Positions 8,851-63,836 of a stretch of DNA of 64,000 nucleotides are shown in pieces. Where the stretch lies: the NCBI GenBank assembly GCA_963575645.1, contig OY754464.1, forward strand, positions 30,519,501 to 30,583,500, written 5' to 3'. Origin of the DNA: Xanthostigma xanthostigma. Its lineage: Eukaryota; Arthropoda; Insecta; Raphidioptera; Raphidiidae. Position numbers and translations under genes: made by a program. The notes beneath the pieces are model-generated. The model worked only from the letters and a program-made list of their open reading frames with translations, searched no databases and was not told the DNA's origin. The first letter of the stretch is position 1; every line of letters starts with the position of its first letter.

Positions 8851-9456
8851 TTGATTTTTTCACAACTCCAAGGAAGTGTGCTTTCGACATTACTATTTAT
8901 GTGTTACGTGAACGACCTACCAAATTGCATAAAAGCAGACAATATAATTATGTTAGCAGATGATATAACTGTGTCGATAGCAGCACCATTCCTAAAAGAA
9001 TTGAAGGAAAAAGTTAAAAAAGTTTTCCAAGACTTTATAAAGTGGTGCGAAAGAAATCATTTAGTGATAAATATTGATAAGACAACCTTACGCTTGAAAA
9101 AGGATAGCTCATTAAGTGATACGTATTTTACTGTGAATAATGCGGCAATAAAGGAAAAAAACAAAACAAAAATATTAGGTTTGCTTATGGATAATACATT
9201 AAAATGGGATGAACACGTAGATACTGTATGCAACAAACTAAATTCTCAACATTTCCAAATCAGAAATCTAAAACGAAAAGTAGATCAACAAACTCTATTG
9301 AGTGTTTATTATTCATTAGTATTGTCCACGGTAAAATACGGCATTATTTTTTGGGCAAACAGCACAACAGTACTAGAGTTTATATACACCCAGAAACGAA
9401 TCATAAGGTTAATTTTCAACTTGAAGCCTAGAGAAACCAATTTTAATTATTATTGA
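8851..9456 (+). pseudogene. Jockey/CR1-like LINE reverse transcriptase, 5'-truncated fragment
   Basis: The 201-residue frame holds the palm half of a non-LTR reverse transcriptase: QGSVLSTLLFMCYVNDLP (family usual QGSVLGPLLF.LYINDLP), then the catalytic box as LADDI where YADD is usual, then FIKWCERNHLVINIDKT and ILGLLMDNTLKWDEHV, typical of the thumb side. The upstream fingers and the endonuclease are absent. GP to ST and Y to L changes at conserved sites suggest a dead copy. The CTTATCTTATCTTATT tail just after it is a LINE-type 3' tail. The start is only the first ATG; the homology is continuous from there. Confidence 0.85.
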
Positions 9457-39062: not shown

Positions 39063-39154
39063 TTAAATATGATATTCGAGCGGCAGATATCATCAACCGA
39101 TTGAGATGAAAATTTGTATACACGTTTAGTTTGAATGACAATGCATGGTTAGCT

Positions 39155-40165
39155 GTATGACGTCACTCTAAATCCAATATGGCGGACTTCTAAAGATGGC
39201 GGACTAATTTTATTATGCTTTCCTACAATATGGGTATCAAATGAAAGGGCTTGCTGAGAATAACTCGAAAAATATAGTGACGTCACTCTAAATCCAATAT
39301 GGCGGACTTCTAAAGATGGCGGACTAATTTTATTATGCTTTCCTACAATATGGGTATCAAATGAAAGGGCTTGCTGAGAATAACTCGAAAAATATAGTGA
39401 CGTCACTCTAAATCCAATATGGCGGACTTCTAAAGATGGCGGACTAATTTTATTATGCTTTCCTACAATATGGGTATCAAATGAAAGGGCTTGCTGAGAA
39501 TAGCCCGAAAAATAAAGTGACGTCACTCTAAATCCAATATGGCGGACTTTTAAAGATGGCGGACTAATTTTATTATGCTTTCCTACAATATGGGTATCAA
39601 ATGAAAGGGCTTGCTGAGAATAACTCGAAAAATAAAGTGACGTTACACTAAATCCAATATGGCGGACTTCTAAAGATGGCGGACTAATTTTATTATGCTT
39701 TCTTACAATATGGGTATCAAATGAAAGGGCTTGCTGGGAATAACTCGAAAAATATAGTGACGTCACTCTAATTCCAATATGGCGGACTTCTAAAGATGGC
39801 GGACTAATTTTATTATGCTTTCCTATAATATGGGTATCAAATGAAAGGGCTTGCTGAGAATAACTCGAAAAATAAAGTGACGGCACTCTAAATCCAATAT
39901 GGCGGAATTCTAAAGATGGCGGACTAATTTTATTATGCTTTCCTACAATATGGGTATCAAATGAAAGGGCTTTCTGAGAATAACTCGAAAAATAAAGTGA
40001 CGTCACTCTTAATTCAATATGGCGGACTTCTAAAGATGGCGGACTAATTTTATTATACTTTCCTACAATATGGGTATCAAATGAAAGGGCTTGCTGAGAA
40101 TAACTCGAAAAATAAAGTGACTTTAGTTTAAATCCAATATGGCGGACTTCTAAAGATGGCGGACT
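39155..40165. repeat. 120-bp tandem array, about 8.4 units
   Basis: The unit GTGACGTCACTCTAAATCCA, ATATGGCGGACTTCTAAAGA, TGGCGGACTAATTTTATTAT, GCTTTCCTACAATATGGGTA, TCAAATGAAAGGGCTTGCTG, AGAATAACTCGAAAAATATA repeats with exact 120-bp spacing and only one to a few changes per unit. Since 120 is divisible by three, one minus-strand frame stays open over seven units (285 codons, 40-residue period). I read this as a minisatellite, not a protein. A scrap of the unit recurs near 41080-41110. Confidence 0.95.
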
Positions 40166-56000: not shown

Positions 56001-56709
56001 TCTTCTAATATATAAAATTCTCGTGTCACAGTTTTCGTTGCCAAACTCCTCCGAAACGGCTTGACGGATTTTGATGAAATTTTTTGTGCTTATCCGGTAT
56101 CTATGAGAATCGGCCAACATCTATTTTTCATCCCACTAAATGTTAGGTGTAGTCCACCCTTAAATTTTTTTTCTTCCTTTGATTATAATTATTATTAAAG
56201 ACACGAATTTTTTTTAAAATTCGTATCCATGGTTTTAAAATATAAACAGCCTTATGTATGATTTGAAAAAATTCTGTCAAAAATTAAAAAAACATTGATT
56301 TATAATAAACCATTGTGCGAGTCATTAGGATCAGTTTTTCTGACAATTATATTGACAAAAATATGTAATTATAATTCAATAAATTTATTGAATTATATTT
56401 ATATATTGTCAATATAATTGTTAGAAAAATTGGTCGATAATTTATTTATTGAAGAGTACTAATCAGACGTTAATCAAAGATTCAAATATTCCCATTCGTT
56501 CTTTTGCACCGGGCACGACGGCGCAGCCGGAGTTCTCGACATACACACATATACGTCCATGTATATTTTAAAATAAATAAAATAGATAGATAGATGTTCC
56601 AATTAAATTGTTTTATTATTTCACTTTATACGTAGCGAAGCACGTACAGGGCCGCTATATATATATATATTATACTGTTAGGCGGTACGAAGTTCGCCGG
56701 GTCCGCTAG
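56001..56709 (+). mobile_element. non-autonomous Helitron
   Basis: The 5' end TCTTCTAATATATAAAATTC followed by TCGTGTCACAGTTTTCGTTG and ACTCCTCCGAAACGG is a well-known Helitron start in insects, and the base before it is A (56000). The 3' end has a hairpin GGCG...CGCC (56681-56698), then GGGTCCGCTAG, the CTAG terminus, followed by T (56710), as expected for insertion between A and T. The 709-bp body has no Rep/helicase and carries a nested GTCGACCA repeat (56339-56494). It ends 277 bp before the receptor start codon. Confidence 0.85.
56339..56494. mobile_element. Penelope-associated repeat, GTCGACCA family (copy 4, partial)
   Basis: GACAATTATATTGACAAAAA and its mirror ATATATTGTCAATATAATTG form a hairpin; TTGGTCGATAATTTATTTAT and CAGACGTTAATCAAAGATTC mark the family. 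It lies inside the Helitron. Confidence 0.65.
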
Positions 56710-56985
56710 TTTTTCTATAATATAGCTTCATTTACAAATTAATTATTATAAAAAAATGAGAAAATATCTGGAAAATGATAAATGGAATGGTCTGAGTTAT
56801 GGCATAGTATTGAAAAGCGAAAGTTTAAACGCATTATTTTTATTAGCTTGTTTTTTGATCGCAAGTTTAGATAGGTTTCAGACACTTGATTAATTAAATT
56901 CATTGATCAATTGTTATAAGAACCTTTAAATGTCACAAAAGCTAGAATAAAACGCAGTTGTAGTCACCGAAGCTTTTTTTAAACG

Positions 56986-59794
56986 ATGGTTCAGCCTATG
57001 GAATTGTATGGCGCAATTGCCCCTTTATATTATTTCTCGAAATTTCTCGGTGTGGTGACGTATTCTTATGGAAAAGATTCGAATGGAAAAAAATGTTACA
57101 AAACCAATTATTTGTTTGGTTTTTTTGTTGGTATAACGAGACTATGTTTCTTTATCTACGTAAATTTTCATAGTACAACAAACCAAAATACGAGTATTAC
57201 AGAAAAATACAGTGGCGTTGTTGGAAAAAAAGCCAGTGTTACATTTATGTCAACGATTTTTTTAATATGGGTGGCTACGAAAATTATAGCATTGCTTTTG
57301 GGGTTTTTTCGTCAAGAAAATGATATCAATGTGTACAAAAGATTAGCTGAAATTGACAAAAATATCGAAACTTTAGGAGTAAAAATCGATAACGGCTGTT
57401 TAAGAACAGTTGCCATTACAGCAATATTTCAAGTTATCTTTCTGAGTACGATTTTGAATTTCACATCCTTGGTAAAAAGTATATTTTATGGAGATTTTGA
57501 TTTTACTTTTATTATAATAGTTGAAATGTTCGGTGCGTGCATTTCAATATCAGTTACAACAATTTTTAATGTTAATTTATGGATATTGAAGCGCAATTTT
57601 AATTTGATAAATAATGTCACAATTGATATGATAAAATTAACAGCATGGAACAGAAAAGCCTCAACCATTAAAGACCGACACTCAAAAGAAACAGAATTAA
57701 ACAAAATCAGACAAATATCAATTATTCATAAAGAATTGATCAGCATTTCAAAAACAGTGAATCGCAATTTTGGCATCATACTGCTTCAAAAAATCTTGAT
57801 TATTTGGCTAAGTTTGCTTTATGCAATTTATTTTTCTTACAAATATATAGTTTGGTTCATAAAAACTAATGATTATAAACGATTGGACGAAACTACGATT
57901 TATCACTTTCTCTATAACATCATCGATTTGTGTACTTTTGTGTATATGTGCAGAAATACTGCAAAGGAAGTAAGTGGAGATAAACAAAATTTAAAATTGA
58001 TACTAACAAAATTTAATTTAATGCATATTTTTTAGGGTAACCGTTTATCATTGCTAGTACATCGTTTGAGTAGTACCTGTCAAGATTTGGATAGTTTTGA
58101 ATTAAAACATATGGTAAGTCGACAGATATGACCCTGTAGACTTTTAAAATGATACGAAATCTCGCATTCGACCTCTCTAACATCCATATATCTAAAATAA
58201 AAGGGCGTGTTCCGACATATCACCCAGTACACTGGCCAGTGCTAATAACGTCATGAATCCAATGCCATAATTGTACTGGTGTGCCACCATATTGTATTGC
58301 TGAGACAGGTGTGACGTGTGTTCGAGATAGTTTCACGTTTAGATATTTCGTCTGTACAAGTTAATCTGAACGTGAAACTATCTCGTACCTAACACATTTT
58401 TTTCCACTTGTCCAAATGCAATCATATGATTTGCAACTAGAAGTTTCACTTCTGTAATGCGTTCTCGTATAACACATTTTTAATTTTTTCGCAGGTTTAC
58501 TGCAAATAATAAATAAGAAAACACAAGCAGATAACAAATTGTTTGCAGGTTTATTGCAAATATTGTTTTTTTATTTTCGCAGGTTTACTGCAAAGGTTGT
58601 TTTTTTAGCTCAAGTATTATTCTGATAAATTAGTCAAAACTTTTAATTACAATAGGTATACTTTTAAAAATAAAAAAATAAATAAAAAAAACAAATTATT
58701 GCGCGCACCTCACGGTAATCGAATCCGGGCGACCGCGTGGTATGCCAGCATTCTACCACTTACGACCAATGCTTATAAAAGATCATTGTCTATATAGTAT
58801 AATTTCGTGACAAATTCTGTTACATAGGGAAACGAGTTTACCCCCGTATTTACAAAAGTATATTCACTTCAAAAAAGAAAAAATTCAAAATGTGTAAACA
58901 TTGTATTTTAAAGAGGTATTTCAATACAGTCGCGGTGGAGCCAATGACTTCATCACTGTTGTACAGTCGAACGAGGCGCAGCCCCGTGCGACAAGACTGT
59001 TATACGGTGAAATCGAAGGCTGCCGTGTTGGATATCAATAGTGCGCAAAGCCACGGGTAGCAGCTATTATGTTATAATGTATTATTTTTCAGATAGAGAA
59101 CGTTTCGTCCGATTTGCATTGCAGAAAACTTAATTTTACCGTATTTGAAATATTTCAAATTGATTACGAATTTATTCAATCGGTACGTAACACATTTTAT
59201 ACTAATTTTCATTAATTAAAGGCCGCTGCACACGAGGCCAGAAACGCTGCTAGATTCCTTGCTAGATTTGCCTACTAGTTTTCTAGCGCTGGTTTTCGTG
59301 ATTGCTGTTAAGTGCTTGCTTCACACGAGATTATTTTTCAAGTTTGTTTTGTGGATAGATCTGATGCACGCGCAGTGACAGTTCGAATATAAACACAGAG
59401 CAAAACTGGTCTGTTGTCTGACTCTGAGCAGAATGACGCCACGTTGGTTTGTTGGCGTTTGTTCAAGTCCTACGTGACAAGATACTGCATCCTGATTGGT
59501 TCTTGCTCATACTTAGCAGCAAATCTAACAGGAAATATAGCCCTTGTTTTTATTTTAAAACCTATCTTGTGATCTAGCAGGCCAGCCCGCAGTGACATCA
59601 TTTCTAGTTTCGTACCCAGCCTACCGGCTAGCAGAACTCCTAGCAGCGTTTATAGCAGCTGTTTCTTATTGTTGCAATTAAAGTGTTCTTATAATTTTCT
59701 TTCTATTTCAGTTTTTTGCTTTCTGTTTTAGATTGTTGGAACGTTAGCTACTTACTTGATTATATTTGTACAATTTGACCTACAGGTTACATAA
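56986..59794 (+). CDS. insect gustatory receptor, four exons, apparently intact
   Basis: Exons: 56986-57969, 58036-58113, 59093-59182 and 59732-59794 (stop TAA), all joined in phase 0, giving 404 residues, the usual length for the family. Donors are GTAAGT, GTAAGT and GTACGT; acceptors TTTTTTAG, TTTTTCAG and TGTTTTAG; intron 1 is 66 bp with a consensus TACTAAC branch site at 58001. Hydrophobic segments fall near residues 42-60, 85-107, 140-162, 172-200, 264-290, 303-322 and 379-399, as in seven-transmembrane chemoreceptors. The loop phrase LAEIDKNIETLG (120-131) and the C-terminal TYLIIFVQF (391-399, family signature TYhhhhhQF) are diagnostic. The product would be a ligand-gated taste channel subunit in the dendrite of gustatory neurons; the ligand cannot be told. 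The start (AAACGATGG) fits the homologous pseudogene start. Introns 2 and 3 carry insertions. Confidence 0.9.
58114..59092 (+). other. receptor intron 2 with repeats
   Basis: This 979-bp intron holds a short inverted repeat (CGAGATAGTTTCACGTT at 58322 and its mirror at 58370), three copies of a CGCAGGTTTACTGCAAA-type motif (58491, 58543, 58579) and a retroelement end reading GCGCAAAGCCACGGGTAGCA near 59042. A tRNA-like sequence is listed separately. Confidence 0.65.
58705..58772 (-). tRNA. degenerate tRNA-Gly-like sequence inside receptor intron 2
   Basis: On the minus strand GCATTGGTCGTAAGTGGTAG then AATGCTGGCATACCACGCGG and CCCGGATTCGATTACCG follow tRNA-Gly closely. The acceptor stem keeps about five of seven pairs, the anticodon stem and loop are altered (ACC where GCC is usual) and the T stem is imperfect. 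It is most likely a tRNA pseudogene or SINE head. Confidence 0.5.
59220..59659. mobile_element. PIF/Harbinger-like MITE, family H (copy 4) in receptor intron 3
   Basis: AGGCCGCTGCACACGAGGCC, preceded by TAA, opens the copy and GCTAGATTCCTTGCTAGATT follows as in copy 2. The right end stops at TAGCAGCGTTTATAGC, so the last 20 bases are lost. It accounts for most of the 549-bp intron between exons 3 and 4. Confidence 0.85.
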
Positions 59795-60190
59795 TTTTTT
59801 CGACAATTTTCTTGGTGTTATCTGGCCTGAAATAATAAAAATGTAGTAGATAATGTGTGTCAATTGCAACTTTGCGTAAAACAATGAAATTTAAATAGTT
59901 TTGTAGTAAAACCTCCTATAGAAGTAATCTGCACTTTGTTTGATCTCGATACGTTAACTCTTTCGCTTTGAACGAGGAGGTCATATTTGACTTTTTCGCA
60001 TTTTGACATTTTCATATTTGACAAAAAACGGTGAGGAATTTTGGAATAACTTATATATCTTGAATGTGTGGGGAAACCAATTCCAAAAAAATATATTAAA
60101 AGTATGTTAAAACACTTTCGTTTAATGAGCAGCTTTCGTATACATAATACATCATCAGATTAAATCTTTCTACAATCAAATTAAGAACAG
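59795..60190. other. receptor 3' flank, no further gene seen
   Basis: AATAATAAAAATG about 35 bp after the receptor stop could act as a variant polyadenylation signal; a canonical AATAAA is not present close by. No other feature. Confidence 0.4.
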
Positions 60191-60329
60191 AAAAAATATA
60201 TTTACAATTATTTACTTAGAGTGTAATATTGTATTACTTACAAAGTTTTGAGAATAATCAAACTTTTTTCTCAAAACTTTGTAAGTAATATAATATTATA
60301 CTCTAAATAATTGTAAATATATATTTTTT
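60191..60329. mobile_element. foldback repeat, about 62-bp arms
   Basis: AAAAAATATATTTACAATTA...TTACTTACAAAGTTTTGAGA is mirrored by TCTCAAAACTTTGTAAGTAA...TAATTGTAAATATATATTTT, with two small differences. Confidence 0.8.
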
Positions 60330-62387: not shown

Positions 62388-63836
62388 TAACCTGTGACGG
62401 ATGACGAAATCATTAGGATTGTCCACAAATTAAAGGACACTATGTCTTGTGGCATCGATCAAATACCAACTAAAGTGATAAAGTTTGTGATTCCTCTTAT
62501 TGTAAATTTTCTATCGTATTTCAGAAATTTATCTTACGTGCAAGGCAGTTATCCTTCAAACTTAAAAACTTCTCTGATCAAACCGATTTATAAGAAAAAT
62601 GATCGTCATAATGTGGCAAACTACAGACCGATCGCACTAATAAGCATTTTTGCAAAAATATTCGAAAGTGCAACTTACAATAGACTAATGAATTTCGTCA
62701 AGGTAAATAACATATTAACTGAGTGCCAGCATAGTTTTTGACCAAATCTCTCAACGTGTACGGCATGTTGCCATTTCATTCAGCATATCTTGCAACAATT
62801 AGACCATAATAAATATTTCGCCGTTTTGCTGTTTGATTTAACGTCCGCATTCGATACTGTAAATCACTCCTTTCTGTATAAAAAATTGTCGAATTTAGGA
62901 ATTCGAGGAAAAGCACTTGAATGGTTCCAGTCATATTTAAATAATCGTTGTATGATGATCAATATCAACGGCTACAAGTCTGGCACATATGACACTCCGA
63001 TCGGAGTACCTCAAAGAAGCAACTTAGGGCCCATAATATTTTTACTATATATAAATGATCTTCCACAACATATTTCTATTGGTCAAGTCATCATGTATGC
63101 CGACGACACATCGGTGATAATATCAGCCAAAGATACCAAGGAACTTACAGACAGCATTCAAGTCGTCCTAGAAGAATTTATCGCTTGGTGTGAAAAAAAT
63201 CATCTAATAGTCAATTTAAGTAAAACTAATTATATTGTTTTTGATAGACAAAATTGCGATATTTCCAACTTCAATATCCCTCATCAGAATAATGACATAT
63301 CAAAGCTGCTCAGTTCGAAATTCTTAGGTATTTCCATTGACTCGGGATTAAAATGGACTATTCAAATTGAAGGTGTTTGCAAAAGACTCAACACAGTGTG
63401 CTACTACATTAAATCATTAAGGCATATCTTTGATAGTGATGATTTGATGTCTGTGTACTACTCGTTTGCCTACAGCGCCATGAAATTTTGTGTTGTTATT
63501 TGGGGGCACGCATCGGAATCTATCCGAATTTTTAGATGTCAGAAGAGAATTCTTCGACTAATTTTTAATTTGAACAAACGACAATCGTGCAGACAACTGT
63601 TTATTCATAAAAAAATTTTGACATTTTACGCTCTGTATATTTTTGATCTCATTGTATATATTAAGCAAAATCTGAATAGTCTAAATCTGATATCCGACAT
63701 ACACAATCATAATATCCGTAATAATAATAATATTTACATCGGTCGATACAGAACTACAAGATATAGAAACAGCCCACTCTGTAAAGGTGCAGATTATTAT
63801 AACACGCTACCTCCTGAGATCAAAGATATAATATAG
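62388..63836 (+). pseudogene. Jockey/CR1-like LINE reverse transcriptase, one internal stop
   Basis: A reverse transcriptase of about 480 codons begins mid-domain at DDEIIRIVHKLKDTMSCGID, right after the composite repeat, so the 5' part (endonuclease) is missing. Motifs in order: KPIYKKNDRHNVANYRPIAL, the QHSF block, FDLTSAFDTVNHSFLYKKL, GVPQRSNLGPIIFLLYINDL (usual GVPQGS), MYADDTSVI with the catalytic YADD intact, and the thumb FLGISIDSGLKW. A TGA at 62739-62741 interrupts the frame at a position where the family has Arg, consistent with a CGA to TGA change; the frame continues unbroken after it to a stop at 63834. Otherwise little decayed, so young. Confidence 0.9.

What the first reader, a model, noticed from the sequence alone, without database searches (positions are those of the whole stretch)
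56986..59794. Intact four-exon gustatory receptor hidden by introns
Only the first exon is visible as a long open frame. Three small phase-0 exons with consensus splice sites complete the seventh transmembrane segment and the TYLIIFVQF signature, giving a 404-residue receptor with no defect that I can see. It is the one convincing functional host gene of the window. Seen: frames, splice sites, branch site. Known: the TYhhhhhQF motif and phase-0 3' introns of insect gustatory receptors. Inferred: function.
Basis: partly seen in the sequence, partly recalled or inferred. Interest (0 to 1): 0.8.

Follow-up and report, generated by a model that had tools for sequence, protein, structure and literature searches.

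The report
Relocated intact insect taste-receptor gene
This is an ordinary four-exon insect taste-receptor gene that looks intact and selected, and that apparently moved alone to another chromosome from a tandem array of its relatives; the gene type is well known, and only its relocation is mildly unusual.

Summary
Four exons, three GT-AG phase-0 introns and a 404-aa product match Pfam 7tm_7 over nearly the whole profile (111.8 bits, E 6e-32). Exon 1 alone is predicted to fold like the solved receptors Gr43a and BmGr9.

The closest relatives found in the same genome form a tandem array on another chromosome, C8; the best is 71% identical (285 of 400 residues). Six of seven array genes gave models with the same three introns. 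A tree of first exons nests the window gene inside that array. Introns, about 270 bp of 5' flank and part of the 3' flank are shared with the array copy g68, so this was a DNA-level copy, not a retrocopy.

Selection supports function: pooled post-duplication dN/dS is 0.46, clearly below 1, but the window branch alone is borderline (p about 0.02-0.08). Expression and ligand are untested.

By layout it fits the published Type 1 (3-4 exons, ~400 aa) bitter receptors (PMC4817054, passages). New member of a known kind; modest interest.

The parts
56986..57969 (+). Exon 1 (328 codons): N-terminus and TM1-TM6 region of the receptor
   Evidence: Open frame; 7tm_7 52.2 bits alone; start codon aligned with array genes; predicted fold matches Gr43a/BmGr9
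57970..58035 (+). Intron 1, phase 0, GTAAGT...TTTTAG, 66 nt
   Evidence: same codon position in six array genes, 63 and 67 nt in g53 and g49
58036..58113 (+). Exon 2 (26 codons, GNRLSLLVHRLSS...)
58114..59092 (+). Intron 2, phase 0, 979 nt; only its ends align with the array copy g68
59093..59182 (+). Exon 3 (30 codons, IENVSSDLHCRKLNF...)
59183..59731 (+). Intron 3, phase 0, 549 nt
59217..59656 (.). Dispersed MITE-like repeat of about 440 bp inside intron 3
   Evidence: 39 other near-full copies at 90-93% identity among the 71 listed matches; 40 of 4802 first-look candidates were scored; short terminal inverted match 13 of 14; 'MITE-like' is my reading
59732..59794 (+). Exon 4: TM7 end with TYLIIFVQF pore motif, and stop
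56718..56985 (+). 5' flank shared with array gene g68 (197 of 230 aligned bases identical), likely promoter; a 37-nt stretch just before the ATG is absent from g68
   Evidence: promoter role inferred
59868..59955 (+). 3' flank blocks shared with g68 (45 of 49 and 33 of 41 matches), likely 3' UTR
   Evidence: UTR role inferred

Best explanation
It is an intact, protein-coding gustatory receptor gene with the layout of the four-exon 'Type 1' bitter class. It most likely arose when one member of a tandem array on chromosome C8 was copied as DNA, with introns and about 270 bp of upstream sequence, into chromosome C1. The product should be a seven-helix subunit of a tetrameric ligand-gated cation channel in taste neurons: a ligand (probably a plant compound) binds in the pocket of the helix bundle and moves the last helix, so that Q398/F399 of TYLIIFVQF open the pore. 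Shown here: gene model, family membership, relation to the array, retained introns and flank, overall coding constraint. Inferred: expression, tetramer and gating (from BmGr9), bitter-type ligand.
For: Gene model and motif; 7tm_7 111.8 bits over 13-402; C-terminal sequence match to BmGr9 entries, E 0.0011 and 0.0066; predicted exon-1 fold (pLDDT 84.5, pTM 0.83) whose 9 of 9 PDB matches at E <= 0.001 are Gr43a or BmGr9. Array on C8: 7 first exons, 6 complete models with the same three introns. Tree: window gene sister to g68 at 100/99, inside the C8 genes, with forks around it at 90/90 and 100/99. Post-duplication dN/dS 0.464 against 1, 2dlnL about 20.9; window branch 0.37-0.48. Coding gaps between window gene and g68: 2 in 400 codons (whole codons by construction, but both frames read through), against 7 gaps, none a multiple of 3, in the 5' flank. 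Neutral survival of the open frame: 2.65%, or 0.1% and less, of 4000 simulations, depending on branch length. Gating: passages of PMC11062906. Type 1 class: passages of PMC4817054.
Against: For the window branch alone, dN/dS of 1 is not firmly rejected: 2dlnL 2.98 (p about 0.08), or 5.62 (p about 0.02) when g68 has its own ratio; 3.2 in a six-gene run. No transcript evidence was available. No reference bitter receptors could be searched, so the clade is inferred from gene layout. BmGr9's aromatic-bridge Phe333 aligns with Lys286 and its Gln445 with Asp400 (read by hand), so gating details may differ. One array member (g32) gave no exons 2-4.
Confidence: 0.88

Rival explanations
1. A recently silenced copy: the frame is still open but the gene is no longer expressed or selected.
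For: Window-branch dN/dS alone is 0.37-0.48 and rejects 1 only at p about 0.02-0.08; it sits away from its array, with a dispersed repeat in intron 3 and retrotransposon fragments elsewhere in the window.
Against: No stop, frameshift or splice lesion in 404 codons and three introns; under neutrality 2.65% of simulations stayed open at 0.063 changes per site and 0.1% or fewer at 0.12-0.152; its branch is shorter than that of g68; the 5' flank changed less than four-fold sites (34 of 225 against 32 of 86, p 4e-5).
Confidence: 0.1
2. A processed retrocopy of an array gene.
For: It lies away from its close relatives, on another chromosome.
Against: All three introns are kept at the array's positions, and intron edges and the 5' flank align with g68.
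Confidence: 0.01
3. The C1 locus is the older home, and g68 on C8 is the copy that moved.
For: The g68 branch is about twice as long, and the window gene keeps the short intron 1 also seen in g49 and g53, whereas g68 has about 800 nt more there.
Against: The other relatives at 43% or more of first-exon identity are on C8, on one strand, and the window gene nests among them; g68 lies between g49 and g53. The short intron only shows that the insertion came after the copying.
Confidence: 0.05
4. A receptor for sugar or fructose rather than bitter-type compounds.
For: The only solved sequences matched are BmGr9 entries.
Against: The match is weak (E 0.0011) and C-terminal only; the fructose-contacting Phe333 aligns with Lys (read by hand); it belongs to an array of diverged four-exon genes of the layout described for Type 1 bitter receptors.
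Confidence: 0.04

Closest known systems
Lepidopteran 'Type 1' bitter gustatory receptors (for example BmorGR58; PMC4817054, passages)
   Same: About 400 aa, four exons and three introns
   Different: This copy stands away from its array on another chromosome; no ligand known; clade placement against BmorGR58 not tested
BmGr9 / Gr43a fructose receptors (PDB 8uvt, 8vc1, 8jm9, 8zdz)
   Same: Predicted fold of exon 1, C-terminal sequence, TYhhhhhQF pore motif
   Different: Low identity; aligned aromatic-bridge Phe is Lys, and Gln445 is Asp, in the window gene (read by hand)
C8 array gene g68 (C8:47788541-47785108, minus strand)
   Same: 71% identical protein (285 of 400), same introns, shared 5' and 3' flank
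   Different: Other chromosome; about 800 nt extra in intron 1; lacks the 37 nt before the ATG; longer branch

Membership tests
Insect gustatory receptor family (7tm_7) | Profile match to 7tm_7 over the whole domain | tested here: met
   111.8 bits, cut-off 26.6, profile 3-369 of 370
Insect gustatory receptor family (7tm_7) | TYhhhhhQF motif in the last transmembrane helix | tested here: met
   T391-F399 TYLIIFVQF; motif as given in PMC11062906 and PMC9998090 (passages); hydropathy peak at 381-399
[quoted passage not shown]
   pattern stated in PMC9998090 (passages)
Insect gustatory receptor family (7tm_7) | Receptor fold with seven transmembrane helices | tested here: inconclusive
   Exon-1 part predicted and matched to Gr43a/BmGr9; TM7 exon supported by sequence only; the spliced protein was not folded
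Insect gustatory receptor family (7tm_7) | Ligand-gated cation channel activity | not testable with these tools
   Needs expression in cells
Type 1 bitter-type gustatory receptor | About 400 aa encoded in 3-4 exons | tested here: met
   404 aa, 4 exons; definition from PMC4817054 (passages)
Type 1 bitter-type gustatory receptor | Falls in the bitter clade of a receptor tree with reference sequences | not tested
   No annotated insect receptor set was among the collections offered
Fructose receptor (Gr9/Gr43a) | Aromatic bridge Tyr-Phe on S5 | tested here: not met
   Aligned residues are Y285-K286, read by hand from the alignment, with BmGr9 numbers set by its QF motif at 443-444; Y285 invariant and K286 at least 90% in 21 rows

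The most novel reading that the evidence does not exclude
The copied unit is a self-sufficient taste gene: about 230 bp of upstream sequence went with it and has changed less than silent sites, so the moved receptor may be driven by this compact promoter outside the array, and may be expressed in a different neuron or stage from its C8 sister.
Probability: 0.25. Interest if true: 0.45.

Novelty: new member of a known kind. Interest (0 to 1): 0.25.

Why it matters
Lepidopteran taste receptors are reported to expand by tandem duplication (passages of PMC9339325). A moved copy that kept its introns and upstream sequence and stayed intact is a small natural experiment on whether a short promoter is enough to run such a gene away from its array. 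It also shows that a tool-free reading of raw sequence placed three small exons exactly where the paralogues have them.

Tried and rejected
A loose six-frame tblastn of single exons against the C8 array gave too much noise and was replaced by a splice-aware search. A retrocopy origin was rejected because the introns are kept. I asked whether C1 might be the sex chromosome: Period and one of two TIM loci lie on C3 about 0.8 Mb apart, which, from recalled knowledge of lepidopteran Z chromosomes, makes C3 the likelier Z. A lipoprotein family that I recalled as lepidopteran gave one weak match (28.5 bits, cut-off 25), so the order Lepidoptera is inferred, not proven. Array gene g32 gave no exons 2-4 and was left out of the codon analysis. 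The 90 bases before the ATG of the six array genes were printed; by eye only g68 resembles the window gene there, so whether the 37 nt were gained here or lost in g68 is open. No Rfam family reached its cut-off and ARAGORN found no tRNA in the window. A paper search for gustatory receptor, Lepidoptera, interchromosomal and duplication together gave 0 papers; this is one narrow search, not proof of absence.

The tree and the fold used the window exon 1 plus 20 of the 29 other loci fetched (L009 is the window itself). Left out were L023 (a stop), L033 and L037 (first-exon matches not included), and six partial pieces, two of them (L027, L034) the window's own small exons. The regions L043-L045, L050 and L051 were fetched but not analysed. 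Not answered: repeat searches of the genome with window 56500-56985 and with intron 2, because the server was busy each time.

Full report
Observation. The gene model was rebuilt from the sequence. Exons 56986-57969, 58036-58113, 59093-59182 and 59732-59794 are each a multiple of three; the introns of 66, 979 and 549 nt are all GT-AG and phase 0; the product has 404 residues. Only exon 1 is a long open frame (349 aa, running into intron 1). Against 7tm_7 the spliced protein scores 111.8 bits (E 6.1e-32, residues 13-402 on profile positions 3-369 of 370); exon 1 alone scores 52.2 bits, so the small exons double the score.

More than chance. Peptides of exons 2-4 from three of the six array gene models were used to rank candidate exons between 57970 and 61500. 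The array exons had been found with window peptides, so the test is not independent. The shared splice positions and the shuffle control still make chance very unlikely. An acceptor six bases further in (exon start 59099) ranks second for exon 3 and would remove two residues; it is a possible minor variant.

Relatives. The genome (G000, 623 Mb, 28 contigs; window at C1:30519501-30583500) gives 112 exon-level 7tm_7 matches, one of them the window gene; the tool calls such counts lower bounds. The closest to the window gene form an array on C8, minus strand, about 47.77-47.80 Mb, with first exons 68, 53, 49, 46, 43, 32 and 30% identical; first-exon matches in other clusters on C10 and C7 are mostly at 23-29%. 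Six of the seven C8 genes give full four-exon models with the three introns at homologous codons and the same phase; all 18 introns chosen are GT-AG. For the seventh (32%) exons 2-4 were not found. Intron 1 is 66 nt in the window gene, 67 and 63 nt in g49 and g53, and 863 nt in g68.

History. A maximum-likelihood tree of 21 first exons puts the window gene with g68 (100/99), inside the C8 genes; the fork that joins this pair to g53, g49 and g46 has 90/90, the fork that adds g43 has 100/99, and all C8 rows plus the window gene are split from the rest at 99/97. Five prime of the ATG, 56718-56985 aligns with g68 (197 of 230 aligned bases, seven gaps of 1, 2, 1, 2, 1, 1 and 37). Similarity starts a few bases after what looks by eye like a repeat end near 56709; the search that would have tested this repeat did not complete. 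Three prime, two blocks between 59868 and 59955 align. Intron edges align; the interiors of introns 2 and 3 do not. Most of intron 3 (59217-59656) is a dispersed repeat: 39 other near-full copies at 90-93% are among the 71 matches listed, from 40 scored of 4802 first-look candidates. So the unit was copied as DNA with its introns and upstream region. That the intron 3 repeat arrived later is inferred from its absence in g68; its loss there is not excluded.

Selection. Pairwise dN/dS between window gene and g68 is 0.37 (dS 0.43). In a seven-gene codon model (one topology, my own script) the window branch has a ratio of 0.478 (2dlnL against 1 = 2.98), or 0.368 when g68 has its own ratio (2dlnL 5.62); both post-duplication branches together have 0.464 (2dlnL 20.9). 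With one degree of freedom, worked out by hand, these are p of about 0.08, 0.02 and 5e-6. A six-gene run gave 0.466 and 2dlnL 3.2 for the window branch. The window branch alone is therefore suggestive, not decisive. Two further signs help. Simulated neutral change, starting from the present sequence and without indels, left the frame open in 2.65% of 4000 runs at 0.063 changes per site, and in 0.1% or fewer at 0.12-0.152. Window gene and g68 differ by only two gaps in 400 codons, each two codons long (a protein alignment, so gaps are whole codons by construction, but both frames read through), while the 5' flank has seven gaps, none a multiple of three. The flank itself differs at 34 of 225 aligned bases against 32 of 86 four-fold sites (Fisher p 4.4e-5). 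That hints at a constrained promoter, although only the alignable part is counted.

Mechanism. Exon 1 was folded from an alignment of 21 contiguous first-exon translations (pLDDT 84.5, pTM 0.83). All 9 PDB matches at E <= 0.001 are Gr43a or BmGr9; Orco, olfactory receptors and Gr64a follow. Residues 251-400 match BmGr9 by sequence (E 0.0011). In BmGr9 the Gln and Phe of TYhhhhhQF form the pore gate, and an S5 Tyr-Phe bridge links ligand pocket and pore (passages of PMC11062906). By hand from the alignment, the window protein has Q398 and F399, the bridge Tyr as Y285 (invariant in 21 rows), Lys286 in place of the bridge Phe, and Asp400 in place of Gln445. A cation channel gated in the same way, with a different ligand contact, is the likeliest mechanism. 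This is inference from homology.

Placement. Helicoverpa work defines Type 1 bitter receptors as about 400 aa in 3-4 exons, with BmorGR58 (four exons, three introns) representing most Bombyx bitter receptors (passages of PMC4817054). GR genes generally, not universally, keep three 3' phase-0 introns (passages of PMC9998090). Tandem growth of bitter clades, and SINE repeats near GR clusters, are reported for Spodoptera (passages of PMC9339325); GRs spread over 23 and 20 chromosomes are reported in two Phthorimaea species (passages of PMC11102633). The gene fits this picture. I found no survey of how often single receptor copies move between chromosomes (five paper searches), so I cannot say how rare the move is.

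Limits. There are no expression data. No annotated insect receptor set was searchable, so the bitter clade is inferred from layout. Some repeat searches did not complete.

Noticed in passing
window 39152-40006 (- strand): Open frame of 285 aa built of repeated units (TSLYFSSYSQQALSFDTHIVGKHNKISPPSLEVRHIGFRV); a protein-like tandem repeat with an FNIP hit of 31 bits (cut-off 21, no single stretch passing) that looks like an artefact of the repeat.
   Followed up: partly
window 8851-9456 and 62394-63836 (+ strand): Reverse-transcriptase fragments of retrotransposons: RVT_1 at 35.1 bits (8851-9453) and 78.6 bits (62790-63833); 62394-62738 looks related by eye but had no Pfam hit.
   Followed up: partly
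window 60193-60329: Long inverted repeat: 65-nt arms, 82% complementary, 7 nt apart, just downstream of the receptor gene.
   Followed up: no
G000 C10:6.89-7.10 Mb: Very large run of 7tm_7 matches to the C-terminal third of the profile only, many with stops in the matched stretch: another receptor array, perhaps with decayed members or matches running over introns.
   Followed up: no
G000 C8:47776080-47775133: Array member g32 has a long first exon but no recognisable exons 2-4 before the next gene; possibly truncated.
   Followed up: partly
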